DNA of 64,000 nucleotides from Streptomyces sp. NL15-2K. GTDB lineage: Bacteria; Actinomycetota; Actinomycetes; Streptomycetales; Streptomycetaceae. The notes beneath the pieces are model-generated. The model saw only the letters and a list, made by a program, of their open reading frames with translations. It did no database searches and was not told the origin of the DNA. This document shows, one piece after another, positions 7,326-63,487 of the stretch. A program made the translations under genes and the position numbers. The DNA is taken from the NCBI RefSeq assembly GCF_030551255.1, contig NZ_CP130630.1, positions 4,941,501 through 5,005,500 of the forward strand, given 5' to 3'. Position 1 is the first letter of the stretch, and each line of letters begins with the position of its first letter.

Positions 7326-8324
7326 ATGTCCCCGAACCAAGCCCGGCCGTCCCGGCGCACCGTTCTCGGCGGGGCCGCCGCCGCCGCGCTCACGCTGGCG
7401 GCCGGTGCCGGCACGGCCAGTGCCGCCGCCGGAACCGTAACGAGTGCGTGGCCGACTGAGTTCCCGCTCCCGGACGGCTGGCTGCCCGAGGGCATCACCA
7501 TCGGCAGAAAGCCGTACGCCTACATGGGCTCCCGCGCGAACGGCGCCGTCTACCGCACCGACCTGCGCACCGGCAAGGGCGGCGTCCTGTTCGAGGGAGC
7601 CACGGGCACGGCATCCATCGGCCTGAAGCTGGACCGCGACGGTCTGCTCTACCTCGCCGGAGGCGCCGGAGGCACCGCGCGCATAGTCGACTCCCGTAGC
7701 GGCAAGCTCAAGGCCACGTACCAACTGACCGACAACGCCGCCCCGTTCATCAATGACGTCATCCTCCTCGGCGACCGCGCCTGGTTCACCGACTCGCGCG
7801 ACGCCGTACTCTACGGCGTACCTCGGGGCCGTGGTGGCGAAGTCCGCAGCCTGCCGCTCGGCGGTGAGTGGACGCAGACGCCCGACGTCAACAACGCCAA
7901 TGGCATCGTCGACACCCCCGACGGCCGCGGCCTGATCGTCGTCAAGAGCACGCCGGGCGAGCTCTACAACGTGAACCTCAAGACCGGTGAGGCGAAGAAG
8001 ATCACACTGAAGGGCCAGGCAAATGTCGCCAACGGTGACGGTCTGCTCCGTATCGGCCGCACCTTGTACGTCGTGCAGAACCCACAGACCCTGATCAGCG
8101 TGTGGGACCTTTACGTCACGCGGAACCGGCAGAGCCTGGTCAGCGTGTGGGACCTCGACGCGAAGGCCACCACCGCCACTCTGAAGCGGACGATCACCGA
8201 TCCCCGGTTCGACGTTCCGACCACTGCCGCCCGCTGGGGGGACCGGTTGTATCTCGTCAACGCCCGGTTCACCAGCCCTCAGAAGCCCGAGACGACGTTC
8301 AACGGCGTCGCCGTTCCTGCCTAG
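7326..8324 (+). CDS. Tat-exported six-bladed beta-propeller (SMP-30-like) protein
   Basis: The product is about 332 aa. ATG 7326 has GGAGG 8 bases upstream. The N-terminus is a twin-arginine signal (SRRTVLGGAAAAALTLA, cleavage near ASA). The mature part has regularly spaced strands such as GAVYRTDLRTGKGGVLFEG, NDVILLGDRAWFTDS and NGIVDTPDGRGLIVV, as in extracellular propellers of the SMP-30/gluconolactonase class. Its ligand is unknown. Two oddities: a 15-residue unit ending SVWDL is tandemly repeated at about 8070-8157, and the stop codon is supplied by CTAG of a MITE footprint, so the C-terminus may be truncated. Confidence 0.75.
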   Translation: MSPNQARPSRRTVLGGAAAAALTLAAGAGTASAAAGTVTSAWPTEFPLPDGWLPEGITIGRKPYAYMGSRANGAVYRTDLRTGKGGVLFEGATGTASIGLKLDRDGLLYLAGGAGGTARIVDSRSGKLKATYQLTDNAAPFINDVILLGDRAWFTDSRDAVLYGVPRGRGGEVRSLPLGGEWTQTPDVNNANGIVDTPDGRGLIVVKSTPGELYNVNLKTGEAKKITLKGQANVANGDGLLRIGRTLYVVQNPQTLISVWDLYVTRNRQSLVSVWDLDAKATTATLKRTITDPRFDVPTTAARWGDRLYLVNARFTSPQKPETTFNGVAVPA

Positions 8325-49014: not shown

Positions 49015-49150
49015 GAGGTCTCCCGGGCGTGGCGCGACAGAGGGAGCCGACGGCGGGGACGCCGGCGGGGGCGTGATGCATGAGGCCGCGGGGGTGTGCG
49101 GCGCGGAGGGCGCGAGGAGGTCGGAAGGCGCCGTGGAACGGCAGCTCGAC

Positions 49151-49213
49151 AGTTCGACTGCCGCTTGGGTAGTTCGATAAAGCAGTTGCGTTTTATAATC
49201 GGAGGCAGTTCGA
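49151..49213. promoter_or_regulatory. Regulatory region between sugar operon and ROK gene
   Basis: AGTTCGA occurs three times (49151, 49171, 49207). Between the last two, CGATAAA and TTTTATAATCG (49175-49201) form an imperfect A+T-rich inverted repeat. It is the only A+T-rich patch in the divergent gap and is the likely ROK operator and promoter. Confidence 0.55.
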
Positions 49214-49297
49214 CCCGCGTCAAGGACTCACGGCTGGATTGTTATCGTCGGTGCGGCCGCGCCGGTCCCCGCCGCACCACTCCCCAGGAGGTTGATC

Positions 49298-50548
49298 ATG
49301 CAGGCGCTGTGGCCGCTCGGAGGGCCGGCGGAGCCGAACGCTCCCGGGCACGAACTGCCCGCGGTGGTGGGCGTCGCGGACCTGCGTGCCACGAACGCCG
49401 CGGCCATCCTCGCCGCCGTCCGCTCGACGGACCCGCACCCCCGGCTGTCCACACTGGCCGAGGCGACCAAGCTCTCCCGGCCCACAGTCGAAGCGATCGT
49501 CGAGGAACTGACCGACTGCGGCCTCATCGAGGTCGCCCCGGCCGTCTCCGCCCGTGGCCAGCGGTCGCCCGGTCGCCCGGCCCGCCGGTTCCGGTTCCGC
49601 CCGCACGCGGGCTTCGTCGTCGGCGTGGACGTACGGCCCCGATCGGTGAGTGCCTGCCTCGCCGACCTCGACGGCCGGGTGGTGGCCGTCGAACGCAGGT
49701 CGGTGCGCGCCGATCTGGGCGGCCAGGCCCGTGCCCGCGCCGTCACCGCGGTGGTGCGGCGCGCGATCGACAGTTCCGGAGCCGATGCCCGGAGAGTGTG
49801 GGCCGCGACGATAGGCACCCCCGGTCTGGTGAACCGGAGCAACACCCGTATCCGGCAGGCCGACAACCTCAAGGGCTGGGCCGAGGCGGACGTCGTCACC
49901 ACCCTCCGCGACGCCCTCGGCTGCCCGGTCGCCGTGGAGAACGACGCCAACCTCGCCGCGCTGGGCGAGCAGTGGCGCGGGGTCGGCGGCTCGGCCGACG
50001 AGATGGTCTTCGTCCTGCTCGGTGAACGCCTCGGTGCCGGCATCATCACCGGCGGACGCCTGCTGCGCGGGCACCGCGGCGCGGCCGGTGAGATCGGATT
50101 CATCCGCTTCCCCGGCAGCACCTCGTCGCAGCCGGGCCTCGAACCCCTGGTCGAGAACGTCGAGAACCATGGCGCGGACCTGGTACGTAGCGCAGGCGCC
50201 GACATCGTCCGTGGCGCCGCCTCGGGGGATCCGGAAGCGGTCGCGGCCATCACGTCGTACGGGAGGAGACTGGCCGCCGGGATCGCCCCCGTGCTGCTCG
50301 CGCTCGACCCGGCCCTGGTCGTGCTCGGCACCAGCCTGTTCGCCGCTCCCGACCTGCTCCCGGCGGGGGAACTCCTCCTGAGTGCCGCCGAGGAGGAAGC
50401 CGGCAGCCTCCTCGTCGACCTGCCGCAGTGGCGGCTGTCCTCCCTGGGTGACGAGGCCGTGATCACCGGCGCGGTACGTTTCGCCCTCTCCTCCGTCGAA
50501 GAGGTGCTGCGCACCCGGCCCACGCTCCTTCCGGCCCGGGGGCGGTGA
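49298..50548 (+). CDS. ROK-family transcriptional regulator
   Basis: The product is 416 aa. ATG 49298 follows CAGGAGG. The N-terminal winged helix reads LSTLAEATKLSRPTVEAIVE. The ROK domain has GVDVRPRSVSACLADLDGR, ATIGTPGLVN and VENDANLAALGEQWRG. The zinc-binding Cys cluster of typical ROK proteins is missing after GHRGAAGEIGF. It probably represses the divergent sugar operon and senses a sugar. Its last 46 codons are repeated at 60739-60876. Confidence 0.9.
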   Translation: MQALWPLGGPAEPNAPGHELPAVVGVADLRATNAAAILAAVRSTDPHPRLSTLAEATKLSRPTVEAIVEELTDCGLIEVAPAVSARGQRSPGRPARRFRFRPHAGFVVGVDVRPRSVSACLADLDGRVVAVERRSVRADLGGQARARAVTAVVRRAIDSSGADARRVWAATIGTPGLVNRSNTRIRQADNLKGWAEADVVTTLRDALGCPVAVENDANLAALGEQWRGVGGSADEMVFVLLGERLGAGIITGGRLLRGHRGAAGEIGFIRFPGSTSSQPGLEPLVENVENHGADLVRSAGADIVRGAASGDPEAVAAITSYGRRLAAGIAPVLLALDPALVVLGTSLFAAPDLLPAGELLLSAAEEEAGSLLVDLPQWRLSSLGDEAVITGAVRFALSSVEEVLRTRPTLLPARGR

Positions 50549-50562
50549 CGCGCTCGGCTCGC
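50411..50562 (+). repeat. Direct repeat, ROK 3' end, copy 1
   Basis: This stretch matches 60739-60890 without gaps and with few mismatches (offset 10328). It covers the last 46 ROK codons and about 14 bases beyond. Confidence 0.85.
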
Positions 50563-50564
50563 GC

Positions 50565-51029
50565 CTAGTCCCGTGAGGGAAGGCGTGCGGGGGCCGTGTT
50601 GCTCACCTGCTGAAAGATGACCGACGTGCGGAAGCCGGTGATTTCGCCGCGCTTGCTGAGCCGGTCGGTGAGGAAGGCGTGCAGGTGGTCCAGGTCCTGG
50701 ACGGCGACGTGGAGGAGGAAGTCGTCGCCCCCGGAGAGGACGAAGACGTGGAGGACTTCCGGCAGGCCGCCGGCGAAGGCCTTGAAGGTGTCGATGACGG
50801 CGCGGCTGAGCGGGCGTACCTGAACCGACACGAGCGCCTGAACGCCGCGGTTGAGGGCCGCGGGATCGATGTCGGCGTGGTAGCCGCGGATGACGCCCCG
50901 GCGGTGGAGCGCCCGGACCCGCTCCAGGCAGGTCGACGGGGCGATGCCGAGCTGTCGGGCGAGTTCGCGGTTGGACTGCCGGGCATCTGTCTGGAGAAGC
51001 CGGACGATCTCCGAATCAAGTTCATCCAT
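50565..51029 (-). CDS. Lrp/AsnC-family regulator
   Basis: The product is 154 aa. ATG 51029 (DELDSEIVRLLQTDAR) is the natural family start; longer upstream frame is an artefact. The HTH is NRELARQLGIAPSTCLERV and the RAM domain is QALVSVQVRPLSRAVIDTF. It is divergent from the amino-acid dehydrogenase fusion and probably regulates it in response to an amino acid. A 13-bp palindrome sits just before its start codon. Confidence 0.92.
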   Translation of the reverse strand: MDELDSEIVRLLQTDARQSNRELARQLGIAPSTCLERVRALHRRGVIRGYHADIDPAALNRGVQALVSVQVRPLSRAVIDTFKAFAGGLPEVLHVFVLSGGDDFLLHVAVQDLDHLHAFLTDRLSKRGEITGFRTSVIFQQVSNTAPARLPSRD

Positions 51030-51033
51030 GGCC

Positions 51034-51046
51034 GGGTACGGTACCC
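51034..51046. promoter_or_regulatory. 13-bp palindrome GGGTACGGTACCC
   Basis: The palindrome is perfect around a central G and overlaps the place where the ribosome site of the minus-strand Lrp gene should be. A likely autoregulatory site. CGGACGAACGA also occurs twice in this gap (51116, 51142). Confidence 0.55.
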
Positions 51047-51167
51047 AATCTTCAGCCAAACGTTCGGTCGAGCCCCTGAGTGATGAGTCGGTCGTCCAGT
51101 ATGGCGTCGTCGAAGCGGACGAACGAGAAGCATATGAAAGACGGACGAACGAAGGGGCTGCGGACTC

Positions 51168-52793
51168 ATGCTCGATCACGAGCAGGTCGCGATCCACACC
51201 GGTCGGCGTTCCCGGCTGCCGGTGATCGTGGCTGTTCACTCGACGGCACTCGGCCCGGCGGCCGGCGGCCTGCGGCTCTGGCACTACCCCGACTGGCGGG
51301 ACGGCCTCACCGACGCCCTTCGGCTGTCGGCGGCGATGACCTCGAAGTTCGCCGTGGCCGGGCTGCCCAGCGGGGGCGGGAAGGCCGTCGTGGTCCTGCC
51401 GGAGGGGACGGAGCTCGATGACGGGCGGCGCCGCGACGTGCTGCATGACGTGGCGGACGTCATCGCGTCGCTGGGCGGTGTGTACGCCACCGGGCCGGAT
51501 GTCGGGACCGGGCCCGAGGACATGGCTTTGATCGGGGAAATCACTCCTCATGTGTTCTGCCGGCCGGCCCGTCTGGGCGGCAGCGGCGACTCGTCCCCGC
51601 ACACCGCGCAGGGAACCCTCGCCGCACTGCGGGCCGTCGGCCGACGGCTGTACGGCAGCTCGAGTCCGGTCGGCCGCCGTCTCGCCGTGGTCGGTCTGGG
51701 CCGTGTCGGCGCCGGGCTCGCCCGTCTGCTCGCCGCCGAGGGAGCCGCTCTGACGGTGACCGACATCGATCCGGACAAGCGGAAGATCAGCGACGAGCTC
51801 GGCGCTGTCTGGCGGTCGCCCGAGGAGATCCTCGCCGCGGACGTGGACATCGTGGTCCCCGCGGCTCTCGGCTCCGTCCTGACCAGGCGGTCCGTGGCGG
51901 ATCTCCGCTGCCGAGCCGTGGTCGGACCGGCGAACAACCAGCTCGCCACGCCGGATGTGGCGGACCTGCTGCACCAGCGCGGCATCATCTGGGTGCCGGA
52001 CTATGTCGCGAGCGCGGGAGGAGTCATCAACGCCGTCAGCACCGAGCTCCACCGCGTCGGTGCCGACGACGCCCGTGCACGAGTCCGCGCCATCGAGGAC
52101 ACCGTCGACGACCTGCTGGACACCGCGCGGCGCAGCGGCCAGACCCCGGCGCGGGCGGCGAGCGAGCTGGCCCGGCGTCGGCTGGGTGCCGCCGGCTCGC
52201 CCACGGCGTCGTCACGGTTGCGGGCCGCGGGGCCTGGTGACGCCGAGAGCGTGGCACTGCTGCACGCCGACAGCTGGCGTCGGCACTACCGCGGCGCGTA
52301 CTCCGACGCGTTCCTGGACGGCGATGTGGTGGCCGACCGGCGGTCCGTCTGGTCCGCGCGCCTGTCCGCCCCGGGCAGCAGTGCGACGGTCGTGGCCGAG
52401 GACGACACCGGGCTTACGGGGTTCGTCCACGTCGTCTTCGACGAGGACGGCCGCTGGGGCAGCCGCGTCGACAATCTGCACGTCACCCAGCACCGCCGGC
52501 GATCGGGCCTCGGCACCGCGCTGCTCTCCCGCGCCGCCAAGGCCGTTACCGAGCGCGCGAGGGGCGACGGCATGTACCTGTGGGTGCTCGAACAGAACAC
52601 GGCGGCACAGGCGTTCTACCAGGCCATGGGCGGCACCCGCGTCGAGAAGGCGCCGGTCCCAGCCCCCGGCGGCGTGGCGTCCCGGCTCGCCGGCTCCCCC
52701 GCCATGCTTCGCTTCACCTGGCCCGACGCCTCACTGCTCGCGCAGACAGGCGGACCGCAAGGCGTACAGACAACCCGGAGGACTACGCCATGA
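51168..52793 (+). CDS. Leucine-dehydrogenase-type amino-acid dehydrogenase fused to GNAT acetyltransferase
   Basis: The product is 541 aa. Residues 1-~345 are a Glu/Leu/Phe/Val dehydrogenase: GPAAGGLRLWHYPDWRDGL, catalytic and substrate lysines in AMTSKFAVAG and PSGGGKAVVV (12 residues apart, as in leucine dehydrogenase), Rossmann VVGLGRVGAGLARLLA, and PDYVASAGGVINAV. Residues ~350-525 are a GNAT domain: VALLHADSWRRHYRGAYSDA, NLHVTQHRRRSGLGTALLSR, WVLEQNTAAQAFYQAMGG. Both parts look intact. Such a fusion is unusual. It may deaminate an amino acid and acetylate a related amine. The stop overlaps the methyltransferase start. Confidence 0.88.
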   Translation: MLDHEQVAIHTGRRSRLPVIVAVHSTALGPAAGGLRLWHYPDWRDGLTDALRLSAAMTSKFAVAGLPSGGGKAVVVLPEGTELDDGRRRDVLHDVADVIASLGGVYATGPDVGTGPEDMALIGEITPHVFCRPARLGGSGDSSPHTAQGTLAALRAVGRRLYGSSSPVGRRLAVVGLGRVGAGLARLLAAEGAALTVTDIDPDKRKISDELGAVWRSPEEILAADVDIVVPAALGSVLTRRSVADLRCRAVVGPANNQLATPDVADLLHQRGIIWVPDYVASAGGVINAVSTELHRVGADDARARVRAIEDTVDDLLDTARRSGQTPARAASELARRRLGAAGSPTASSRLRAAGPGDAESVALLHADSWRRHYRGAYSDAFLDGDVVADRRSVWSARLSAPGSSATVVAEDDTGLTGFVHVVFDEDGRWGSRVDNLHVTQHRRRSGLGTALLSRAAKAVTERARGDGMYLWVLEQNTAAQAFYQAMGGTRVEKAPVPAPGGVASRLAGSPAMLRFTWPDASLLAQTGGPQGVQTTRRTTP

Positions 52794-53572
52794 CCCCCGA
52801 CGCGGGTACCGCCGTCGACCACTACGACCGCCTCCTCGCCGAGCACTACACCTGGATGCTGGGCGGTGACGTCCACGAGGTCGCCGACCGCCAGGCCGCG
52901 CTGCTCGCTGAACTCGGCTTGGCGGGGGCCGAAGCCGACGGGACGGCCGTCGACCTGGGCTGCGGCTCCGGTGCCCAGACGCTGGCGCTGGTCCGCCTCG
53001 GCTTCTCCCCCGTGATCGCCGTGGACACCAGCCGCCTGCTGCTCGACGAGCTCGTCTCGTACGTCCGGGGCGACGAAAACCTCCGGAGCGCCGAGGTGGT
53101 ACGGCCGGTGCATGGCGACATCCGTACCGTGCTGCCCGCGGCGGCCGGGCCGGGCACGGTCGCGGCCGTCGTCTGCATGGGTGACACGCTTCCCCACCTC
53201 CCGTCCAAGGCGGACGTCCCCGTGTTGCTCGGCCACATCAGCCGCGCGCTCGCCTCGGGCGGGCACCTCGTCGTCACTTACCGCGATCTCACAGCGGAGC
53301 TGCGCGGCACGGACCGCTTCGTCCCGGTCCGCAGCAGCGACGACCGGCTGCTCACCTGCTTCCTCGAATACCGTGACGAGGACACGGTGATCGTCCACGA
53401 CCTGCTCCACACCCGGACCAACGGCTCCTGGCGCCAACGGACAAGCAGCTACCCCAAGCTGCGGATCGCGTCCTCCTGGCTGGTCGAACAGTGCCGGGCG
53501 GCCGGACTGGACGTCCGCCACGATGCCGCGGACTCCAGGGGGATGCGGATCCTCCACGCCGTAAAGCCCTGA
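52790..53572 (+). CDS. Class I SAM-dependent methyltransferase
   Basis: The product is 260 aa. ATG 52790 overlaps the fusion-gene stop and has CGGAGGA upstream. Motif I is AVDLGCGSGAQTLALVRLG, motif II IAVDTSRLLLDELV, and VVCMGDTLPHL follows. The layout is of a small-molecule methyltransferase; the substrate may be the product of the upstream fusion enzyme. It is followed after 53 bases by a DinB-type gene in the same direction. Confidence 0.9.
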   Translation: MTPDAGTAVDHYDRLLAEHYTWMLGGDVHEVADRQAALLAELGLAGAEADGTAVDLGCGSGAQTLALVRLGFSPVIAVDTSRLLLDELVSYVRGDENLRSAEVVRPVHGDIRTVLPAAAGPGTVAAVVCMGDTLPHLPSKADVPVLLGHISRALASGGHLVVTYRDLTAELRGTDRFVPVRSSDDRLLTCFLEYRDEDTVIVHDLLHTRTNGSWRQRTSSYPKLRIASSWLVEQCRAAGLDVRHDAADSRGMRILHAVKP

Positions 53573-53625
53573 CGGGCATGCGTGACTCCGACTACCGTGC
53601 GCACCGCGCGAACCGAAGGGCGGAC

Positions 53626-54177
53626 ATGAGCGATCCCACCAGAAGAGCCGAACTGTTCGGCGGCGCCGACAGCGGTCGCCGGTTCACCGGCCCGACGACC
53701 GGCGACGAAGGGCGGATGCTCATCGATGTCCTGAGTGCCCAGCGGGCCACGCTGCGGTTGAAGTGCTCCGGCCTGGGCCGGGAGTTGTCCCTGCGGTCCG
53801 TGGAGCCGTCCACGCTCTCGCTGCTCGGCCTGGTCCGACACCTCGCCGATGTGGAACGCCGCTGGTTCCGGCGGGTCCTGGCCGGGCAGGACGCGCCGAC
53901 CCTTTTCTCCTCGACTACCGACCCCGACGAGGACTTCAACGGTGCCACGGACGACCCCGGAGTCGTCGCCGCGGCGTGGGAGGCGTGGCGGGCCGAGGTG
54001 GCCTTCGCCGAACAGTTCGTCACCGAGGCCCCCGACCTCGACGTCGAGGGCGACGACTCCTGGCGCGGAACGGTGTCGCTGCGCTGGGTACTCATCCACG
54101 TGATCGAGGAGTACGCCCGCCACAATGGCCATGCCGACCTGCTCCGCGAGCGCATCGACGGAGCGGTCGGCGTGTGA
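53626..54177 (+). CDS. DinB-family (DUF664) protein
   Basis: The product is 183 aa from ATG 53626 with GAAGGG upstream. The signature LSLLGLVRHLADVERRWFRR and the close VLIHVIEEYARHNGHADLLR with metal-ligand His residues are clear. In actinomycetes such proteins include mycothiol-dependent enzymes. It ends the small operon with the fusion dehydrogenase and methyltransferase. A 6-bp GGCCGG/CCGGCC hairpin follows at 54178-54200. Confidence 0.88.
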   Translation: MSDPTRRAELFGGADSGRRFTGPTTGDEGRMLIDVLSAQRATLRLKCSGLGRELSLRSVEPSTLSLLGLVRHLADVERRWFRRVLAGQDAPTLFSSTTDPDEDFNGATDDPGVVAAAWEAWRAEVAFAEQFVTEAPDLDVEGDDSWRGTVSLRWVLIHVIEEYARHNGHADLLRERIDGAVGV

Positions 54178-54457
54178 GGCCGGATCCACTTCGACCGGCC
54201 GTCGATGCCGAGCGGCCTTCCGTTCGGCCACCGTAGCCGTCCGGAGCAGGCCGCCACGATGCCAAGAGCGTCCTCGTATCGGGCTCCCCTGGCTGCAGGA
54301 CAGTAGCGAAGGGCAGCAATCGCTACCTACAACCGCCGGCGGCGGGCTGACCATCTCGCTGAACGTCTACAACCGCCCAGCCGGCACGCCCGAGATGGAC
54401 GAGGCCCCGCGCAACGCCCGGTGGGTCGCGCAGAGCCTCGTGCAGGCGGGTTGGTGC

Positions 54458-55564
54458 TCAGTCCGTCGCGGCGGCCCGAGGCACCGGCCGACTCGGGGTA
54501 TCGAGCCAGATGCGCTGTCCCTCGGCGGTCACGGTCACCCCGAAGCGCTCACGGCCCGGCCGGCCGTGCTCGACGTACAGCTCGTGCGCGGCCTCCACCG
54601 CATCCCACAGCAGGCGCGGCCCGGCCTGCCGTACGGTGCCGTCCTCGGCGCGCGCCCACGCGCCGTCAGCGCCCCACAGCTCCACGGCCGTCACGCGGCC
54701 ATCGTCGCCGCGCTCGAAGGCGAACGCGGTGTCGGGGGCGACGAGGGACAGCACGAACCGGAACGCCTCGTCCTCGGCGACGACGTTCAGGTCCAAGCCC
54801 GTGAGCCGGCCGCTTGTCGCGTCCGGCCTGCCGGGGTGGGCCGGGGCGCCGGTGGTGCCGGCGTCGCGTACGGCCATGAAGTACGAGCCGACGGGCAGGA
54901 ACCTGCCCTCGGCGCGGCCGTCGTCGGCGACGACCAGGCGCACCGTGCCCCAGCCCACCGGGCACACGATCAGGCCCGCGGGCTTCACCTGCTCCAGCCA
55001 CGCGGCCGGGACCGTGCTGAACCCACAGGTCGCGATCAGCCGGTCGTACGGGGCACGGGCCGCGTACCCCTCGCGCCCGTCCCCGGTGATGACGAGCGGG
55101 GTGTATCCGGAGCACCGCAGCCGCGATCCCGCCAGCCGCGCCAGCACCGGGTCAACCTCCACCGTCACCACCTGGTGGCTGCCCAGTCGCTCGGACAGCA
55201 GCGCGGCGTTGTAGCCGGTGCCGGTCGCGATCTCCAGCACGCGGTGACCGTCGGCGACGTCGAGGGCCTGGAGCATGACGAGCATCAGCCCAGGGGCCGT
55301 CGACGACGAGGTGGCCACGCCGTCCGTGAGCTGCGTGGCCAGCGCGTCATCCGCGTAGACCAGGTCAAGCCAGTCCGGATCGGCGGACGTCACTCGCCGC
55401 TGCCCCTCGCTGGTCAGGGTCCAGAACTCCGGCACGTACGGGTGGCGCGGAACGGTCTCGAACACCTTCCGCCATGTCGGGTCGGTCAGTTGGCCGCTGG
55501 CCTCCAGACCGTCAGCCAGCGCCGAGCGCAGCTCCTCGGCGCGCTCTTCGGTGTGCGTCGTCAT
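54458..55564 (-). CDS. tgmC: PIMT-like methyltransferase of graspetide cluster
   Basis: The product is 368 aa from ATG 55564, overlapping the ATP-grasp stop by 4 bases. The N-terminal half is a protein-isoaspartate methyltransferase fold: VPRHPYVPEFWTL, QLTDGVATSSSTAPGLMLVM, motif I VLEIATGTGYNAALLSERLG. The extra C-terminal ~150 residues are typical of the methyltransferase linked to TgmA/TgmB. In the characterised relative (fuscimiditide) this enzyme methylates an Asp that then closes to an aspartimide. Confidence 0.9.
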   Translation of the reverse strand: MTTHTEERAEELRSALADGLEASGQLTDPTWRKVFETVPRHPYVPEFWTLTSEGQRRVTSADPDWLDLVYADDALATQLTDGVATSSSTAPGLMLVMLQALDVADGHRVLEIATGTGYNAALLSERLGSHQVVTVEVDPVLARLAGSRLRCSGYTPLVITGDGREGYAARAPYDRLIATCGFSTVPAAWLEQVKPAGLIVCPVGWGTVRLVVADDGRAEGRFLPVGSYFMAVRDAGTTGAPAHPGRPDATSGRLTGLDLNVVAEDEAFRFVLSLVAPDTAFAFERGDDGRVTAVELWGADGAWARAEDGTVRQAGPRLLWDAVEAAHELYVEHGRPGRERFGVTVTAEGQRIWLDTPSRPVPRAAATD

Positions 55565-56538
55565 GGTCGTCCCTTGGCGAGTAGGTCAGCGATGTGCGCG
55601 GCGATGGGCAGGCCGGTGCGGTTCTGGATCCAGGACCACTCTCCGGACGGGTTGCATTCGAACATCACCCAGTCCCCGGACGGGGTGACGGCGAAGTCGA
55701 ACGCGCCGAAGTTGAGCCGGAAGTGCTCCAGCCAGCCCAGCACGCCCGCCCTCACGTCGTCCGGCACTTTGCACACGTCGTAGGTGAGCGCGTCGTAGTC
55801 GCTGCGCCAGTCCACGCGGGCCGCGTCGCTGCCCGCGTGGATCTCGGCCGCGAACATCTCCGTGCCCACGACGGTCAGCCGCACCTCGTGCGACTTGGGC
55901 ACCCACTCCTGGAACAGGTGCGCCGTCAGGGACACGGAGTCGTCGATGGCGTCGGGGTCGACCACGTGTGTGGGGACCCCGGTGCGACGGCCGTCCGGGT
56001 ACTCCAGCGGGCCGCCCATGAGCGGCTTGCAGATCACCCGGCCGCCCACTTGGTGGCAGAACTTGCGGACCGCCTCCGGGTCGGTGGTGATCAGCGAGCG
56101 GGGCGTACGGAGCCCGTGGGCCGCCGCCACCGGGAGTTGTCCGGGCTTGTGGGAGGCGATGCCGTCCGCCTCGGGCCGGTTGACCCATGTCACCGGCAGC
56201 GCGTACAGCGTGCCGAGCAGGCCGGCCAACGCCTGTTCGTTCGCCCACGAGCGGTGGGGCTCCTCCATGTGCTCGGAGACGGCGGGAAGGCGGGGCCGCC
56301 TGTAGTAGACGGCCCTCACCTCCTCCAGCCGCACGGAGCGATACTCGTCAGCCAGGATCCCCGCCCAGGGTGCTGCAGCGTGTGCGACGGACAGGGAGAT
56401 GGTCTGTGGGAAGTCGCCCATGTCGAACCTCATGACCGGCACGTGCCGGATCGTCAGCTCGTCGACCACCAGGTCCGCCGCGGGGTCCAGTTCCTTGGTG
56501 ACGACCAGCACCGGGCCGCCGGACAGGTGCTGCGTCAC
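55561..56538 (-). CDS. tgmB: ATP-grasp ribosomal peptide maturase
   Basis: The product is 325 aa. GTG 56538 overlaps the precursor stop. The N-terminus (VLVVTKELDPAADLVVDEL) is the pre-ATP-grasp domain. The ATP-grasp core has GGRVICKPLMGG, HLFQEWVPKSHEVRLTVVG, NFGAFDFAVTP and the metal-binding VMFECNPSGEWSW. It should activate Asp/Glu side chains of the precursor with ATP and join them to Ser/Thr/Lys side chains, forming ester or amide crosslinks. Confidence 0.92.
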   Translation of the reverse strand: MTQHLSGGPVLVVTKELDPAADLVVDELTIRHVPVMRFDMGDFPQTISLSVAHAAAPWAGILADEYRSVRLEEVRAVYYRRPRLPAVSEHMEEPHRSWANEQALAGLLGTLYALPVTWVNRPEADGIASHKPGQLPVAAAHGLRTPRSLITTDPEAVRKFCHQVGGRVICKPLMGGPLEYPDGRRTGVPTHVVDPDAIDDSVSLTAHLFQEWVPKSHEVRLTVVGTEMFAAEIHAGSDAARVDWRSDYDALTYDVCKVPDDVRAGVLGWLEHFRLNFGAFDFAVTPSGDWVMFECNPSGEWSWIQNRTGLPIAAHIADLLAKGRP

Positions 56539-56765
56539 CGCATCAGGTACGGGTCGGCGGTGTCGTCGTTCTTGCTGTCCCAGTTGGTGTTCGTGCAGCT
56601 TCCGGCCAGGTTGGCGGACCGGCTCCACAGGGCGCCGGTGCCCTCGGTCATGACGTTGACCTGCCGGACCGGGTCGTACGTGAACGAGCCCGCCTCCAGG
56701 GTCACGGTGTACGGGGTGCGTTCGGCGCGGGCGCCGAACGGGACGAGTGCTGCTGCTGTGGGCAT
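56535..56765 (-). CDS. tgmA: Graspetide (ATP-grasp-modified RiPP) precursor peptide
   Basis: The product is 76 aa. ATG 56765 has AGGAGG upstream. The leader carries VPFGARAERTPYTVTLEAGS and the FTYDPVRQVNVMTEG stretch typical of tgmA precursors. The presumed core (about residues 50-76) is SANLAGSCTNTNWDSK followed by NDDTADPYLMR: Ser/Thr/Lys donors beside Asp acceptors, as crosslinking needs. It is the first of three coupled genes tgmA-tgmB-tgmC. The exact core boundary and links are unknown. Confidence 0.88.
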   Translation of the reverse strand: MPTAAALVPFGARAERTPYTVTLEAGSFTYDPVRQVNVMTEGTGALWSRSANLAGSCTNTNWDSKNDDTADPYLMR

Positions 56766-56811
56766 GCGTGCCTCCTGTCGTTGATGCTGCTCGGACTGTT
56801 CTCCGCCCCAC

Positions 56812-57147
56812 CTACGTCCGAGGACGGTGGCGAGGGTCTTGCAGGGCCCGTTCCGCCCCGGTGGGGAGCCCGCTGTGTGGGGGCGGAGCGGGGGTCGTAC
56901 ACCGCCCGGTGCCAGGCGCTCGGTCTCCGGCACCAGGCGGCGGCTTGAGGGGCACCGCCAGTGACAGGCGGGGAGCGCAGAACTCGCAGACCCACAGCTG
57001 GAACAACCAGCCGCGGTGACGCGCCTCACCCCACACAAGGCCGGCCATCCCCAACCGGCGAGCGCAGCGCGCGCAGTCGATGGCCATCTGCTGGCGCGGG
57101 CTGAGCTGGTCGACGCGCGGCAGCTCGGCCACAGGTGCCGCACTCAC
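56812..57147 (-). CDS. Small protein with zinc-ribbon-like CxxC pairs
   Basis: The product is about 111 aa. GTG 57147 overlaps the upstream ATPase stop. Two CxxC pairs (DCARCARRLG; WVCEFCAPRL) could bind one zinc. The C-terminal 45 residues are Pro/Gly/Arg-rich and look disordered. It lies 46 bases ahead of tgmA in the same direction, so it may be part of the RiPP operon or its control. Confidence 0.6.
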   Translation of the reverse strand: MSAAPVAELPRVDQLSPRQQMAIDCARCARRLGMAGLVWGEARHRGWLFQLWVCEFCAPRLSLAVPLKPPPGAGDRAPGTGRCTTPAPPPHSGLPTGAERALQDPRHRPRT

Positions 57148-57557
57148 TGTTCGCCGTCCGCGCGCAGCTCGGCCCACACCCGTTTCCCGCCGTGCACCAG
57201 CTCGCTGCCCCAGGCGTGCGCGAGGACGTCGACCAGGAGGAGGCCGCGGCCGTGCTCGTCGTCAGGGGACGGCGTGCCCGGGGCGGGCCTGGCGCGCGAG
57301 GTGTCCGTCACGACGATTCGCGTGGAGTCCTCGCCGGTCCGGGTGATCGAGACGCCGACCGTCGCCGCGTCGGTGTGCTCCACCGCGTTGGCCACCAGCT
57401 CCGTGACGACCTGCTCGGCGGCCTCCACCAGACGGTGCAGCCCCCAAGTCTCCAGCGCCAGCGCTATGTCCCGACGGGCTTGAACAGCGGCCTCCAGCCT
57501 CGCCGCGTACCGCTCCTGGTAACGCTGTGGCCCCACCGTTGCAGCTGTCATGGTCAT
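57144..57557 (-). CDS. Anti-sigma-factor-like HATPase (RsbW type)
   Basis: The product is 137 aa from ATG 57557 with AGGGACG upstream. The GHKL ATP-binding N-box (VVTELVANAVEHTDAATVGV) and the G1/G2 region (DDEHGRGLLLVDVLAHAWGS) are intact. Such small ATPases bind sigma or anti-sigma-antagonist proteins in Streptomyces. It is the first gene of the leftward run that leads into tgmABC and is divergent from an XRE regulator. Confidence 0.85.
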   Translation of the reverse strand: MTMTAATVGPQRYQERYAARLEAAVQARRDIALALETWGLHRLVEAAEQVVTELVANAVEHTDAATVGVSITRTGEDSTRIVVTDTSRARPAPGTPSPDDEHGRGLLLVDVLAHAWGSELVHGGKRVWAELRADGEQ

Positions 57558-57759
57558 CGTCGCGTCCCTGGGGGTGCTCGTGTTCCGTGTAGCCCGACCA
57601 CCGGCCGCCAGGCTGGGAGCGTCAGCAACGTCACCCACGGTGACAGCCTCCCTACTAGGCTGGTCCAGTGATGCCTACGACGGTAGGGCGCTGTGATCAG
57701 CGCTTGAAGTGACCGTGAGTACAAGTGGTTCGCCGCGATTGCGCGGGAGTGAGGCTGTC

Positions 57760-58875
57760 ATGCGATCAAGTTCGCGACGAACCCTGACTGACAGTCAGGG
57801 TTCACCTGGACGCCCCCGCGCGGGCGTCATCTCCGGCTACGTCTTCCGGCTCGTCCGAGAGCAGCAGAGACACACCCAAGAGGAAGCAGCCGAACAGCTG
57901 CGCGTATCGCCGGACACGATCGCCGGGTGGGAGTCCGGCCGCCGCCCCCTGACCGCCGTACCGGTCGGGCAGATGCTTGTGCACCGTCATCGGCTGATGC
58001 GGATGGGCACCGCCCCCGCGCTCCTGCAAGCCCTGGACCTCGCCCTGGAGGCGGACGTCCTCATCGCCGGCGCCCTCGACGACAAGGCCGCAGCCGAGGA
58101 AAGCCCGCTCGGAGCCTGGGTAATGCAGCGCGACCTCGTCGAAGTCCTCGCCTGGCCCCTCAACCATGTACCACCCCAGTCCGTCCGCGACCTGCCCGAT
58201 CCGCCCCGGAAGCGCCGAGGACCCGCGCCGACCGGACCAGAGCTGTCGGTCTCCGACCGGGCACGGTTCTTCACGCAGATCCGGCGTACCGCGGAGCAGG
58301 CTCGCGGCGAGGACCAGTTCCTGCTCCGCCGCCAGGCCCTCTACCTCTCCGGGTACGACGGCCAGGCCGACACATCGGAGTGGCTGGCCCACCAGCAGGC
58401 CACGGAACGTCCCGGTGACTGGCTCACGCGCTGGCTCAACTCCCGGTCCGTCGCCGCTGTATCGGCCCGGAGAGGTGACCGAGACCGTATGAACTACTTC
58501 ATCGACACCTCTCTCATCGACGACGACGCAGGCGAGGCCGCGAACCTGAACTACTGGGCGTACTGGGTCGGCGAGACCGCTCACCTGGAGTTGAGCGACG
58601 ACTTCATCGCCGCCCGCATGCCCGGACCGTGGCCGGGTGACAGGCTCCTCGCCCACCTCGCTCAGGGGCTCGCGCCGCATCACGGCTACGTGGACCTCAA
58701 CATCCACTCCGTCTGGTCCCTGCTCCAGGTCCGGCCCAGCCTGCTGCGATCCGGCGCAGCAGGCCGCACCCTGCGCGACCGGCTGCCCGTGATGTTGGAT
58801 AGCCGGGAGCTGACGGCGCGCGGGCGCCGGGAGCTGGAGAGCATCCGGTATGCGATCGGCCTCGCCGAGGCGTGA
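57760..58875 (+). CDS. XRE-family regulator with long C-terminal domain
   Basis: The product is about 371 aa from ATG 57760; GTG 57709 is an alternative. The HTH is [20 protein letters not shown], then [15 protein letters not shown]. The rest is helical ([40 protein letters not shown]) without a named domain. A perfect 23-bp palindrome overlaps its first codons (57780-57802). It is followed after 13 bases by an HD-domain gene, and divergent from the ATPase-RiPP run. Confidence 0.82.
57780..57802. promoter_or_regulatory. Perfect 23-bp palindrome in the 5' coding region of the XRE gene
   Basis: AACCCTGACTG-A-CAGTCAGGGTT: two perfect 11-bp arms around one base. It encodes TLTDSQG in the XRE frame, yet its symmetry strongly suggests a protein-binding site, perhaps for the XRE protein itself. 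Confidence 0.65.
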
Positions 58876-58888
58876 GAGGAGTCCGACG

Positions 58889-59470
58889 GTGACTGAAGAC
58901 CTGTCAACGGTAGCGCGGTTTCTGTACGAGGCGGGGACGTTGAAGCAGACCAGGCGCACCGGCTGGTGGATGGCCGGCGTACGCGACCCAGAGTCGGTGG
59001 CGGAGCACTCCTGGCGTACCGCGCTCATCGCGACCATCATCGCGAAGCTCGAAGGAGCGGATCCCGCCCGGGCCGCGTTCCTCGCGGTGTGGCACGACTC
59101 GCAGGAGACCCGCACCGGCGACGTGAACCATCTGGGCAAGAAGTACGCCCCGGGAGCGGACCCGCGCGCGGTCACGGACGACCAGGTCGCGGGCATGCCC
59201 GAAGTCCTCGCCTCCGCGGTGCGCGAACTCGTGGCCGAGTACGAGTCGAAGGAGTCCCCCGAAGCCGTCTGCGCCCGGGACGCCGACAAGCTGGAGTGCA
59301 TGATCCAGGGCATCGAGTACAAAGCCCAGGGCTACGAGAACGCCCAGCGGTGGATCGACAACAGCCGCGGCCGCCTCACCACGAAGTCGGCCAACGAACT
59401 CGCCGACGCGGTAATGGCGACCGGATCCCTGGACTGGCTGCGCGCTGCCCTCGGAGAGAAGCAGGACTGA
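58889..59470 (+). CDS. HD-domain phosphohydrolase (YfbR-like)
   Basis: The product is 193 aa from GTG 58889 with GAGAGGAG upstream. The HD motif set is present: AEHSWRTALIATII, VWHDSQETRTGD, ARDADKLECMIQG. YfbR-type enzymes dephosphorylate deoxynucleoside monophosphates. It is probably co-transcribed with the XRE gene, a pair I recall from other Streptomyces. Confidence 0.85.
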   Translation: MTEDLSTVARFLYEAGTLKQTRRTGWWMAGVRDPESVAEHSWRTALIATIIAKLEGADPARAAFLAVWHDSQETRTGDVNHLGKKYAPGADPRAVTDDQVAGMPEVLASAVRELVAEYESKESPEAVCARDADKLECMIQGIEYKAQGYENAQRWIDNSRGRLTTKSANELADAVMATGSLDWLRAALGEKQD

Positions 59471-59567
59471 CCTCGGTCCGCTGCCGCTGGACCATGCCAC
59501 GCGAGAGCCGGACGGGCCGCCGGCTCCTCCCCGAGTCGAGCGCGTCCACTGGCGGACGGGCTACGGC

Positions 59568-59994
59568 ATGCGCACCATGGGTGAGTTGGGGTTCCGCCTC
59601 AGTAGTCCGGCGCGGCCGGTCGCGTCGGCATCCGTGGCGGACGTGCCAGAACAAGAGCTGGGCGTGGACCGCCCTGCCTTCGTGATGGACGGCGCGGGTG
59701 CTGCCCTGTCGGTCATCCCGCTCGGGGCCGCCACGGCGAACCCGCCAGTCCGGATCGGCATCGGTGACGTGCGGGCCATCGACCGAGCCGTCAGCCAGAT
59801 CTACGCACACGGCTACGACCACGGCTCCGCCACCCTGCGCCGCGCTGCCTCCGAGGCGCTGCACACCGCCTATCAATGGCTCAAAGAGGGGACGTACACG
59901 GCACAACGTCGAGAGCGCGCTTCAGCGGCACGCCGCCGTCCCGGCGGTTGCTGACTGGCTGGAGGAGTACCGCACCATCACCGGTGTCAGCTGA
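59568..59994 (+). pseudogene. Regulator-like C-terminal remnant, frameshifted
   Basis: The first frame reads VRIGIGDVRAIDRAVSQIYA, HGYDHGSATLRRAASEALHT and AYQWLKEGTYT, like the C-terminal half of XRE-type regulators. After about 59900 the likely continuation is in another frame (VADWLEEYRTITGVS). No HTH is present upstream. It ends 10 bases before the GNAT start. Confidence 0.45.
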
Positions 59995-60004
59995 GGAGGA
60001 GACG

Positions 60005-60577
60005 GTGACCACCCCGAGCACGCGTACCAACGTGGTGATCCGCACCTACGGGCCCGGCAAGGTGCCGCCGATGCTCGACGTGCTCGCCGACATCTGGGCC
60101 GACGCTCACCCCGAACTCGTCGACAATCCGAGCGCGGAGGCACTCGGCCTGTCCGTGCCCGCCTTGCGCCGCCAGGTCGAAAGCCACCTCAAGCACCCCG
60201 GCTTCACTCTGGTCGTCGCGTACGCGGGCGGCACTCCCGTGGGCTTCGGCTACGGCTTCCCCTGCTCCGCCGACTACTGGTTCGGCTCCGGCCTTGTCGA
60301 CCAGGTCCCCGAGGGCGCCCGCACGGAGCGCCTGATGGGGCTGTGCGAACTGGCCGTGCGCCCACCGTGGCAGTCCCAGGGCATCGGCACACGGCTGCAC
60401 ACCGCGCTGCTCCAGGCCATCAATCCGAAGTGGTCCTCACTGCTCGCACTGCCCTCCAACCAGCGCGGCCAGGATCTCTACGCGCGGCTGGGCTACAGGT
60501 ATGCGGGCGAGTACAGGAACACACCCGACGGCCCGGCCTTCGATCTGCTGCTTCTCCGTGTCGAGGACGTGGACTGA
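60005..60577 (+). CDS. GNAT-family N-acetyltransferase
   Basis: The product is 190 aa from GTG 60005 with GGAGGAG upstream. The acetyl-CoA site is visible: LCELAVRPPWQSQGIGTRLH, then LLALPSNQRGQDLYARLGYR. The acceptor region (PVGFGYGFPCSADYWFGSG) suggests a small substrate. It follows the XRE-HD genes in the same direction. Confidence 0.9.
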   Translation: MTTPSTRTNVVIRTYGPGKVPPMLDVLADIWADAHPELVDNPSAEALGLSVPALRRQVESHLKHPGFTLVVAYAGGTPVGFGYGFPCSADYWFGSGLVDQVPEGARTERLMGLCELAVRPPWQSQGIGTRLHTALLQAINPKWSSLLALPSNQRGQDLYARLGYRYAGEYRNTPDGPAFDLLLLRVEDVD

Positions 60578-60700
60578 CGAAGGAGCGTGGCTCGCCCTCG
60601 GCTACAGCGTCTCGGGGGATCTGGAACGCTCATGCGAGGTCGGTGAGACCGCTGCTGCCCGCCTCAGCACGGTGCGGTCGCCGAGAAGCGTGGGTCTCCT

Positions 60701-60876
60701 GCGCGGATTTGGTACGTCGCGCAGGTGCCGACATCGTCCTCGTCGACCTGCCGCAGTGGCGGCTGTCCTCCCTGGGCGACGAGGCCGTGATCACCGGCGC
60801 GGTACGTTTCGCCCTCTCCTCCGTCGAAGAGGTGCTCCGAACCCGGCCCACCCTCCTTCCGGCCCGGGGGCGGTAA
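60701..60876 (+). pseudogene. ROK regulator 3'-end duplicate with internal deletion
   Basis: 60701-60738 matches 50172-50209 of the ROK gene. 60739-60876 matches 50411-50548 base for base with few differences. A 201-bp in-frame piece (67 codons) present in the ROK gene is missing between them. No HTH or start remains. Homology continues about 14 bases past the stop. Confidence 0.85.
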
Positions 60877-60901
60877 CTCGCTTGGCTCGCCGGGAGCGCG
60901 A

Positions 60902-61618
60902 TCAGTCGGTGCGGAGGCCGTCGATCAGACGGTTGAGGAACCGGGTGAACGTGGCTTCGGGCGTGACGGCGCGTGCGGGGGCGGAGAGCGCTTCGGCGAG
61001 TTCCGGGTGGCGGCCGTCCGCGGCGACAGCGGCGAGGTAGCGGGCTTCGGCTGCGACCCGGTCGGGGGACTGGGTGGCTGCCGCCTGCGTGATCTCGTGG
61101 GTGACGTGCCCGGCGACGAATGCGGTGAGCTGGGCGAACACCTCCAGCTTCGCCGCGCCGTCCAGCCCGGTGGGCCGCAAGGCGGCGAGTGCGTGTTCCA
61201 GGAACGCCAGGGTGTTGGGCCCGAGGCTGCGGCGGGTGGACAAGGCGGCGGGCAGCCAGGGGTGGCGCAGCATGAGGCCACGCTGGAGGTGGGCGATGGC
61301 CTTCAGGTCGGCGCGCCAGTCGCCGGTGAGCGCACCCGACGTCGGCAGTTCGCCGCTGACGTGGTCGACCATCAGTTCCAGCAGTGTTTCCTTGTCGGAG
61401 GCGTAGCTGTAGAGCGACATGACTCCGGCTCCGACCTGTGCGGCGACCCGCCGCATGGTGACCGCTTCGAGCCCTTCCGCATCCGCCAGCGCGACGGCGG
61501 CCGCCGTGATCGCTTCGCGGCTGAAGGCGGGCCGGCGGCCCCTGCGGGACTGAGCGGGGCTCAGCCACAGCTGCTCGGGGTCGACACCCGTGGTGCCGGA
61601 CCCGCCATCACGCGTCAC
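60902..61618 (-). CDS. TetR-family regulator
   Basis: The product is about 238 aa from GTG 61618 (AAGGAG upstream); ATG 61675 would add 19 residues. The HTH is AEGLEAVTMRRVAAQVGAGV, then MSLYSYASDKETLLELMVDH. The C-terminal domain is of the TetR/AcrR AefR-like type (LQRGLMLRHPWLPAALSTRR). It is divergent from the CocE-type hydrolase and probably controls it through the palindrome at 61742. Confidence 0.9.
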   Translation of the reverse strand: MTRDGGSGTTGVDPEQLWLSPAQSRRGRRPAFSREAITAAAVALADAEGLEAVTMRRVAAQVGAGVMSLYSYASDKETLLELMVDHVSGELPTSGALTGDWRADLKAIAHLQRGLMLRHPWLPAALSTRRSLGPNTLAFLEHALAALRPTGLDGAAKLEVFAQLTAFVAGHVTHEITQAAATQSPDRVAAEARYLAAVAADGRHPELAEALSAPARAVTPEATFTRFLNRLIDGLRTD

Positions 61619-61659
61619 GGTCTTCGCACTCCTTCTGCCGATCACTGATGACTCATCAC

Positions 61660-61754
61660 GAGGCGTCATCACCACGAGGCCTCTTCACTGAGGCCTCATC
61701 ACCGAGGCCGTTGTCGGGCCCATCCAAGCATCCTCTATTCTCGTACAACGTACG
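61660..61754. promoter_or_regulatory. Control region: tandem GAGGCNTC repeats and CGTACAACGTACG palindrome
   Basis: Three tandem 14-16-bp units start at 61660, 61676 and 61690 (GAGGCGTCATCACC and variants). CGTAC-AAC-GTACG (61742-61754) is a perfect palindrome 20 bases ahead of the hydrolase ATG, a good TetR operator candidate. Confidence 0.6.
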
Positions 61755-61774
61755 GGAAATCGAGGAGGGGAACC

Positions 61775-63487
61775 ATGGCATCACACACCCACGACGCCGG
61801 GCCCAGGCCGGCCTGGACACCGCCCGCCCGGAAGCCGCCGCTGTCCTCACGGATGTTGAGGGCGATCTGGCGCAGTCTCCCGGCCAAGCGGCACGACGTC
61901 GGATGGGAGCCGGGGCTGGCGGTACCGGCCGCCGACGGCAGCCCGTTGATCACGGACCACTACTTCCCGCGCGCCGACGGCGATTTCCCCACCCTGCTGG
62001 TGCGCTCGCCGTACGGCAGGGGCCTGCCATGGTCGCCCATGTACGGCATGCTCTTCGCCGAACAGGGCTTCCACGTGGTCCTGCAGAGCTGCCGCGGCAC
62101 CGGCGGCTCAGGCGGTGAGTTCGACCTGTGGCGCAACGAGGCCGCCGACGGCCGGGCCACGGTGTCCTGGCTGCGCGAACAGCCGTGGTTCAACGGGACC
62201 CTGGGGACGGTCGGCCCCAGCTACCTGGGGTACGTACAGTGGGCGCTCGCCCTGGACCCCCCACCGGAGCTGAAGGCGATGGTGGTGCAGGTGGGTCTGC
62301 ACGACCCCTACGCCTTGTTCCACACTGACGGGGTCCTCCAACTGGAGAACGCCCTCCTCGTCGGCGCGGGCATGACGCACCAGCATCGGGGGATCGCACC
62401 CTTCGCGAGGGCGACGCTGCGCCTGCAGCGCCGACTGCGCGCCATCATCACCGCACGGCCGCTGCGCGGGGCGTACGCGTCCGCCCTCGGCGACATACCG
62501 TGGCTGGACGACGTGATGACGCACCAGGACGCCGGCGACCCCTACTGGAACGGCGCCTCCCTGGCACGGGCGGCCGAGCGGATGAGCGTCCCCACGAGCC
62601 TGATCACCGGATGGTACGACGCCCTGGTCGACCAGAGCTTCGAGCAGTACGCCCGCCTGCGTCAGGCCGGCTGCGACACCGCCCTGCTCGTCGGCCCCTG
62701 GACCCATGCGTCCGCACTGCAGCAGGGCTGGCCCGAGGTGTTCGCCGAGAGCCTCGCCTGGCTGCGCGCCCACCTGTGCGCCGAGCCCTCCGGCCTGCGC
62801 CCCACCGCCGTGCGCGTGCACGTCGGCGGCGAAGACGCGTGGCGGGACCTCGACGACTGGCCGCTCTCCCCCGGCACCACCTCATGGTTCCCCACCCCGG
62901 ACGGGCATCTCACCCAGCAGGCCCCCGCGGACTCCGTACCACTGACGTCCTTTCGCTACGACCCGGCCGACCCCACGCCCTCCATCGGCGGCCCCCTGCT
63001 CTCCCGCACGGCCGGTCCCCGCGACAACAGCGCCCTGGAGGCCCGAGAGGACGTCCTGACGTTCACCGGCCCACAGCTGGCCGAACCCGTGGACATCCTC
63101 GGCCCGGTCGCCGCGCGGCTGAGTATCTCCACGGACACCGGATACACCGACGTCTTCGCCCGCCTGTGCGATGTGGACGCGCAGGGCCGCTCCACCAATG
63201 TCTGTGACGGACTGGCACGGCTTCGGACGGTGGGACAGGCACCCTCGGAGGTCACCGTACCGATGAGCACCACCGCCTACCGCTTCTCGGCCGGCCACCG
63301 TATTCGCTGGCAGATCAGCGGGGGTGCCCATCCGCGCTACGCCCGCAATCCCGGCACCGGAAAGTCTCCGGCGGACGCCGTCGACTTCATACCGACACGC
63401 ATCACGCTCCACACCGACTCCGCGCTGATACTCCCCCACGGTTCCCGGACCACGGGGCCCTCCGGAGCTGGACACCCCGACGCGTAG
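61775..63487 (+). CDS. CocE/NonD-family hydrolase (X-Pro dipeptidyl-peptidase fold)
   Basis: The product is 570 aa from ATG 61775, preceded by GAGGAGGGG. The alpha/beta core has VVLQSCRGTGGSGGEFDLWR, the nucleophile elbow TVGPSYLGYVQWALA and TSLITGWYDALVDQSFEQYA, and His in VGPWTHAS. A C-terminal jelly-roll domain follows (LTFTGPQLAEPVDILGPVAA). Relatives hydrolyse cocaine, alpha-amino esters or acyl peptides. There is no signal peptide. Expression is probably derepressed by a ligand of the divergent TetR. Confidence 0.92.
   Translation: MASHTHDAGPRPAWTPPARKPPLSSRMLRAIWRSLPAKRHDVGWEPGLAVPAADGSPLITDHYFPRADGDFPTLLVRSPYGRGLPWSPMYGMLFAEQGFHVVLQSCRGTGGSGGEFDLWRNEAADGRATVSWLREQPWFNGTLGTVGPSYLGYVQWALALDPPPELKAMVVQVGLHDPYALFHTDGVLQLENALLVGAGMTHQHRGIAPFARATLRLQRRLRAIITARPLRGAYASALGDIPWLDDVMTHQDAGDPYWNGASLARAAERMSVPTSLITGWYDALVDQSFEQYARLRQAGCDTALLVGPWTHASALQQGWPEVFAESLAWLRAHLCAEPSGLRPTAVRVHVGGEDAWRDLDDWPLSPGTTSWFPTPDGHLTQQAPADSVPLTSFRYDPADPTPSIGGPLLSRTAGPRDNSALEAREDVLTFTGPQLAEPVDILGPVAARLSISTDTGYTDVFARLCDVDAQGRSTNVCDGLARLRTVGQAPSEVTVPMSTTAYRFSAGHRIRWQISGGAHPRYARNPGTGKSPADAVDFIPTRITLHTDSALILPHGSRTTGPSGAGHPDA

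What the first reader, a model, noticed from the sequence alone, without database searches (positions are those of the whole stretch)
54458..57557. Graspetide cluster (tgmABC) with a distinctive precursor and a regulatory pair upstream
TgmA, TgmB and TgmC are coupled by 4-bp overlaps. The 76-aa precursor has a short core dense in Ser/Thr/Lys and Asp, ending PYLMR, and one Cys (C57), which is not typical of ester/amide graspetides. A PIMT-like enzyme predicts an aspartimide. An RsbW-type ATPase and a CxxC protein lie directly upstream and may control it.
Basis: partly seen in the sequence, partly recalled or inferred. Interest (0 to 1): 0.75.

Follow-up and report, generated by a model that had tools for sequence, protein, structure and literature searches.

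The report
Graspetide cluster with a conserved cysteine
This is a small Streptomyces gene cluster of a known kind that makes a ring-linked peptide; its unusual feature, a cysteine where other relatives have serine or threonine, is kept in its closest relatives and raises a testable question about a type of link not yet seen in nature.

Summary
Window 54458-56765 (minus strand) encodes a 76-aa precursor (A), an ATP-grasp ligase (B) and a PIMT-like methyltransferase (C), joined by 4-bp overlaps, with an RsbW-type ATPase and a CxxC protein upstream. A and B pass the NCBIfam cut-offs for TIGR04186 and TIGR04187; C matches TIGR04188 below its cut-off. This is the published class of group 13 graspetides (graspimiditides).

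In related cores this place is Thr or Ser, so a natural thioester is possible but unproven. Asp63, followed by Ser, is the likely aspartimide site; the four characterised peptides have Gly there.

RsbW sits upstream of A in 17 of 27 loci. Regulation is inferred only. The genome holds a second, broken copy with an intact, 97% identical precursor.

Verdict: a real member of a known class with a distinctive Cys-bearing core.

The parts
56535..56765 (-). tgmA precursor, 76 aa plus stop. Core residues S56 C57 T58 T60 (possible nucleophiles), D63 (predicted aspartimide site, D63-S64), D67 D68 D71 (possible acceptors)
   Evidence: TIGR04186 30.6 bits, cut-off 25; core conserved in relatives
55561..56538 (-). 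tgmB ATP-grasp ligase, GTG start, 325 aa
   Evidence: TIGR04187 382.5 bits, cut-off 350 (run with one extra codon at the start); matches six solved ATP-grasp ligases in PDB, among them an MvdD-like protein, AMdnB and CdnC
54458..55564 (-). tgmC PIMT-like O-methyltransferase, 368 aa with C-terminal extension
   Evidence: PF01135 101.2 bits; TIGR04188 343.3 bits, below cut-off 380; TGTGYN in the SAM-binding motif
56812..57147 (-). small protein with two CxxC pairs, 111 aa, overlapping the RsbW gene by 4 bp
   Evidence: No Pfam or NCBIfam match; found in 11 of 27 loci, one of them partial
57144..57551 (-). RsbW-type (HATPase_c_2) protein, 135 aa
   Evidence: PF13581 36.3 bits; upstream of A in 17 of 27 loci
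57760..58875 (+). divergent XRE-type regulator, 371 aa
   Evidence: PF01381 and PF13560 at the N-terminus; in 12 of 27 loci, but also in 89 of 392 genus genomes at E<=1e-30
58850..59470 (+). HD-domain protein (YfbR-like), overlaps the XRE gene
   Evidence: PF13023 98.1 bits; in 13 of 27 loci and next to XRE in the 20 further XRE loci read
57651..57738 (.). conserved non-coding block between the RsbW and XRE genes, possible shared promoter/operator region
   Evidence: DNA alignment of 7 loci chosen by me; no sigma-70-type site found by the scan

Best explanation
A group 13 graspetide (graspimiditide) cluster. Shown: gene order, families, conserved core. Inferred: B binds the leader of A, phosphorylates Asp67, Asp68 and Asp71 and lets hydroxyls (or the thiol) of the Ser56-Cys57-Thr58-Asn59-Thr60 block attack them, giving up to three side-chain links around a loop (minus 18 Da each). 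C then methylates Asp63 in the loop (+14), and attack by the Ser64 backbone amide gives an aspartimide (-32). Position 57 is Cys, Thr or Ser in the aligned relatives, so Cys57 is probably placed as one of four possible nucleophiles for three acceptors; whether it is linked or left as a free thiol is open. RsbW-CxxC-A-B-C probably form one transcription unit. The protease, exporter and biological role are unknown.
For: Family matches and 4-bp overlaps. The published class almost always pairs ATP-grasp and PIMT (passage), with Thr-Asp esters around a loop holding the methylated Asp. In 16 precursors that I chose from the Cys, Thr and Ser subfamilies S56, T58, T60, N61, D63, D67, D71, P72, Y73 are invariant, position 57 is C/T/S and 68 is D/E. 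In 23 of the 27 loci read codon by codon, changes at an acceptor occur only in L078 (D68N) and L094 (D71A), where B (L078) or A and B (L094) are also damaged. B aligns with solved ATP-grasp ligases.
Against: C scores below the TIGR04188 cut-off, and the WxxxGxP motif reported for such enzymes reads YVEHGRP here and is variable in relatives. Pairing T60 with D67 would leave a 6-residue inner loop, shorter than the 10-12 of known graspimiditides. No characterised member has Asp-Ser. No product, transcript or protease is known to me.
Confidence: 0.82

Rival explanations
1. Cys57 is linked natively: B joins the Cys57 thiol to Asp68 or Asp71 as a side-chain thioester, so this family makes mixed ester-thioester graspetides.
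For: The same position is Cys, Thr or Ser in the 16 aligned precursors of three subfamilies. On the TgmB tree Cys and Thr members are interleaved: L067 and L095/L098 (Cys) sit with the Thr clade. Graspetide synthetases can form non-native thioesters (passages).
Against: Only two changes of state are needed on the tree, so the C/T/S pattern is weak. There are four nucleophiles for three Asp acceptors, so one can stay free. In an engineered peptide with ThfB, cysteines were not used (passage). Thioesters are labile in a cell (general knowledge).
Confidence: 0.2
2. Cys57 stays a free thiol that serves the finished peptide, by a disulfide dimer, metal binding or reaction with a target or a thiol such as mycothiol.
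For: Cys57 and Trp62 are fixed in this clade (23 of 23 loci read, loci picked by the SCTNTNWDS string). S56, T58 and T60 alone would suffice for three acceptors. A mycothiol-S-transferase-type gene lies convergent at 53626-54177 (PF04978).
Against: Thr or Ser replaces Cys in related subfamilies, which could not do this. The MST-type gene was found in only one other of the fetched loci searched (L095, 37% identity).
Confidence: 0.35
3. RsbW, CxxC, XRE and HD are unrelated neighbours and do not control tgmABC.
For: XRE is present in 89 of 392 genus genomes, far more than the 19 of 392 with this precursor superfamily at E<=1e-6. RsbW is absent from 10 of 27 loci, five of them with open A, B, C frames by my 85% cut, and a sixth (L082) as well.
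Against: RsbW overlaps CxxC and runs towards A with 46 nt between. HD-XRE-RsbW-A-B-C recurs in Actinacidiphila soli (L095) at 34-52% protein identity. The XRE-HD pair is also next to other graspetide or radical-SAM genes (L159, L161, L165, L169).
Confidence: 0.25
4. The cluster is decaying and silent in this genome, like its second copy.
For: Broken relatives are common: B, A or C is incomplete in 11 of 27 loci if L078 is counted as broken and L095 as whole. In the own second copy B stops after about 111 residues.
Against: All three frames here are open and full length.
Confidence: 0.15

Closest known systems
Group 13 graspetides / graspimiditides (fuscimiditide, amycolimiditide, albusimiditide, SsfA)
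   Same: Precursor + ATP-grasp ligase + PIMT-like methyltransferase; Thr/Ser block, loop Asp, C-terminal Asp block; 962 to 1432 clusters reported in three surveys
   Different: Cys57 in the nucleophile block; Asp63 followed by Ser, whereas the four characterised members have Asp-Gly; possibly a shorter loop
STTDTN-type subfamily of Streptomyces precursors (L070, L073, L076, L047-L049)
   Same: Same core frame, acceptors D67 D68 D71, DPY; on the TgmB tree it groups with L067 and L095/L098, beside the main Cys clade
   Different: Thr instead of Cys57; Asp-Gly instead of Asp-Ser; ending FAPAS or FASAS
Imiditides / pamtides and cysimiditides
   Same: PIMT homologue making aspartimide; cysimiditides carry Cys
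   Different: Aspartimide is the class-defining change, without the ATP-grasp step; cysimiditides have a zinc tetracysteine motif, here a single core Cys

Membership tests
Group 13 graspetide (graspimiditide) | ATP-grasp ligase of the SAV_5884/TgmB family | tested here: met
   TIGR04187 382.5 bits, cut-off 350
Group 13 graspetide (graspimiditide) | Precursor of the TgmA family upstream of the ligase | tested here: met
   TIGR04186 30.6 bits, cut-off 25; 4-bp overlap with B
Group 13 graspetide (graspimiditide) | PIMT-like methyltransferase in the cluster | tested here: met
   PF01135 101.2 bits, cut-off 20.3; TIGR04188 343.3, below its cut-off 380
Group 13 graspetide (graspimiditide) | WxxxGxP motif in the C-terminal extension of the methyltransferase | tested here: not met
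   YVEHGRP here; exact motif in 2 of 26 aligned sequences (L064, L066). The review calls it conserved; I do not take it as defining, since the other group 13 relatives aligned here lack it too
Group 13 graspetide (graspimiditide) | Nucleophile block, loop Asp, acceptor Asp block in the core | tested here: met
   Alignment of 16 precursors
[quoted passage not shown]
   Needs mass spectrometry
Native thioester graspetide (hypothetical) | Cys at a linking position, linked in the native product | tested here: inconclusive
XRE-DUF397/DUF5753 regulator pair reported for groups 11 and 13 (passage) | DUF397 and DUF5753 domains | tested here: not met
   XRE protein shows only HTH_3/HTH_31; neither domain in the nine window proteins scanned

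The most novel reading that the evidence does not exclude
A clade of graspimiditides, spread over Streptomyces and Actinacidiphila, naturally uses Cys57 as a nucleophile, so that the ATP-grasp ligase makes a native side-chain thioester beside ester links, and evolution has swapped thioester and ester by Cys-Thr exchange at this place.
Probability: 0.18. Interest if true: 0.72.

Novelty: new member of a known kind. Interest (0 to 1): 0.38.

Why it matters
The passages seen here speak of thioester links by graspetide synthetases only as non-native or from substituted precursors. A natural precursor family with a fixed Cys in the nucleophile block gives ready enzyme-substrate pairs (A, B and C complete in 16 of 27 loci) to test whether nature uses that link. 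It also supplies an Asp-Ser aspartimide site, which has been predicted but is not among the four characterised products. If neither holds, this remains one more member of a class with over 1000 reported clusters.

Tried and rejected
Protein database search for the precursor was not available. PDB searches for the precursor and for a Thr-type relative gave nothing, so the linking residues of amycolimiditide could not be mapped by sequence. The AlphaFold model of the XRE protein was poor (mean pLDDT 52), and I did not run a fold search on it. Rfam found no family at the gathering score in 49000-62000; the promoter scan of 54200-57900 found no sigma-70-type site. I considered that the XRE protein is specific for this cluster and rejected it. 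I considered a plasmid origin: 78 plasmid records have a TgmB relative, none at 60% identity or more. Paper searches: the core string SCTNTNWD is in no held paper; XRE + DUF397 + RsbW + Streptomyces together: none; graspetide + thioester + cysteine: two papers hold the terms, one listed, on chemical protein synthesis. Three main papers on this class are not held, so this core may already be listed there. Papers seen: PMC13001092 abstract, sections 9 and 11, passages; PMC12291112 abstract, section 7, passages; PMC10787088 section 6 and passages; PMC13003496 and PMC13097080 passages only; the others as search listings.

Full report
The observation. The minus strand of 54458-56765 carries three overlapping genes: A (76 aa), B (325 aa, GTG start at 56538) and C (368 aa). 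A and B share GTGA; B and C share ATGA. Upstream on the same strand lie an RsbW-type ATPase gene (57144-57551) and a gene for a 111-aa protein with two CxxC pairs (56812-57147), which also overlap by 4 bp; 46 nt separate the CxxC gene from A. Divergent on the plus strand are an XRE-type regulator (57760-58875) and an HD-domain gene (58850-59470). NCBIfam gives A TIGR04186 (30.6 bits, cut-off 25), B TIGR04187 (382.5, cut-off 350) and C TIGR04188 (343.3, cut-off 380, so not reached). Pfam gives C PF01135, RsbW PF13581, XRE HTH_3 and HTH_31, HD PF13023.

The class. ATP-grasp + PIMT clusters are the published group 13 graspetides or graspimiditides; three surveys count 962, 1326 and 1432 clusters, with four characterised products, all with Thr-Asp esters around a loop whose Asp, followed by Gly, is the methylation site; Ser is listed among predicted followers. 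So the cluster is a member of a known kind, and plasmid records use the same tgmA and tgmB labels.

Relatives. A search of 392 genomes of the genus with A alone found matches in 25. Nineteen have E<=1e-6: reading the cores, 8 genomes carry SCTNTNWDS, 1 (G021) SCTDTNQDG, 6 STTDTN and 4 SSTATN or SSTGTN. The other 6 are weak; five were read and have other core types, G141 was not read. With the 16-row alignment, 48 of 392 genomes match at E<=1e-3, and of 396 genomes drawn from the phylum only the window's own matches. A scan of the species genomes by two short core patterns gave 70 stretches, of which 23 encode a relative. The core is near invariant in them, with departures in L078, L088 and L094, but most were found by that very core, so only the unselected genus search speaks to frequency.

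The core. In 16 precursors that I chose from the Cys, Thr and Ser subfamilies, S56, T58, T60, N61, D63, D67, D71, P72 and Y73 are invariant; position 57 is C, T or S; position 68 is D or E; and the Ser-type rows have four extra residues in the loop. In 23 of the 27 loci read by codon, C57 and D63 never change; D68N is seen once (L078) and D71A once (L094), both in clusters with damaged genes. Across 17 of the 27 precursors pN/pS is 0.148/0.321 in the leader, 0.259/0.447 in the linker and 0.042/0.266 in the core, with the selection bias just named. A TgmB tree of 40 rows (7 of them outgroup; 7 of the 47 extracted relatives were left out; three rows are partial) needs two changes among C, T and S: Cys members L067, L095 and L098 group with the Thr clade. 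This fits interchangeable nucleophiles but is only two events.

What C57 does. There are four nucleophile positions (56, 57, 58, 60) and three acceptors (67, 68, 71). A thioester is possible for graspetide synthetases as a non-native link (passages), and in one engineered case cysteines were left out of the link (passage). I judge a native thioester at about one in five.

Regulation. Among the 27 loci RsbW is beside A in 17, the HD gene in 13, XRE in 12 (in L080, L081 and L086 not as one full-length frame) and CxxC in 11 (L094 partial). Actinacidiphila soli (L095) keeps HD, XRE, RsbW, A, B and C at 34-52% protein identity. XRE itself is in 89 of 392 genus genomes at E<=1e-30. I fetched 20 such loci: 15 of the 17 best matches outside this core family (G397 and G065 were left out) and 5 lower ones picked by me, some because an ATP-grasp match lay near. 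In the 15: two stand beside another ATP-grasp + precursor + PIMT set (L159, L161), one beside a PIMT-like gene (L171), two beside radical SAM genes (L165, L169), one beside a gene with a weak HprK-related match (L166, 22 bits against a cut-off of 200), and nine had nothing I could assign; six of those nine (L163, L164, L167, L170, L172, L173) were searched only with my own models, not with the family libraries, and one (L168) has a CU044_5270-family gene. So XRE-HD may be a shared regulator of several peptide systems, not specific to this one. An alignment of 7 loci shows a conserved non-coding block at 57651-57738. I have no expression data.

Copies. The own genome has a second locus (G000:C1:4216585-4216812, L059) with RsbW, CxxC and a 97% identical A, but B stops after about 111 residues and no C was found in the 15 kb read. 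Counting L078 as broken and L095 as whole, A, B and C are all complete (85% of the query in one frame) in 16 of 27 loci.

Verdict. Confirmed observation; known class; a distinctive and conserved Cys-bearing core; regulation plausible but not shown.

Noticed in passing
window 50399-50562 and 60727-60890: A 164-bp direct repeat (94% identical), copies 10,328 bp apart, encloses the whole region with the cluster. The first copy is the 3' end of the gene at 49292-50548 (ROK-type by my reading, not scanned); the second abuts the gene at 60902-61675 (TetR-type by my reading), whose matches in the closest-matching relatives begin just after the repeat. It may mark an inserted or duplicated segment.
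   Followed up: partly
L059 (G000:C1:4209000-4224000), 7586-7813: Second copy of RsbW-CxxC-A in the same genome with a truncated B and no C found; its intact precursor is 97% identical and could be modified in trans.
   Followed up: partly
L159, L161, L165, L166, L169, L171: The XRE-HD gene pair stands beside other peptide-modification-type genes (ATP-grasp, PIMT, radical SAM, a weak HprK-like match), which suggests a shared regulator that could serve genome mining.
   Followed up: partly
window 53626-54177: Mycothiol-S-transferase-type gene (PF04978) convergent with C; a 37% identical one lies in a like place in L095.
   Followed up: no
window 52787-53572: Class I methyltransferase with a weak match to the daptide methyltransferase model NF041820 (49.5 bits, cut-off 175).
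   Followed up: no
G000:C1:585152-586081: A third, more distant TgmB relative (38% identity) in the same genome.
   Followed up: no
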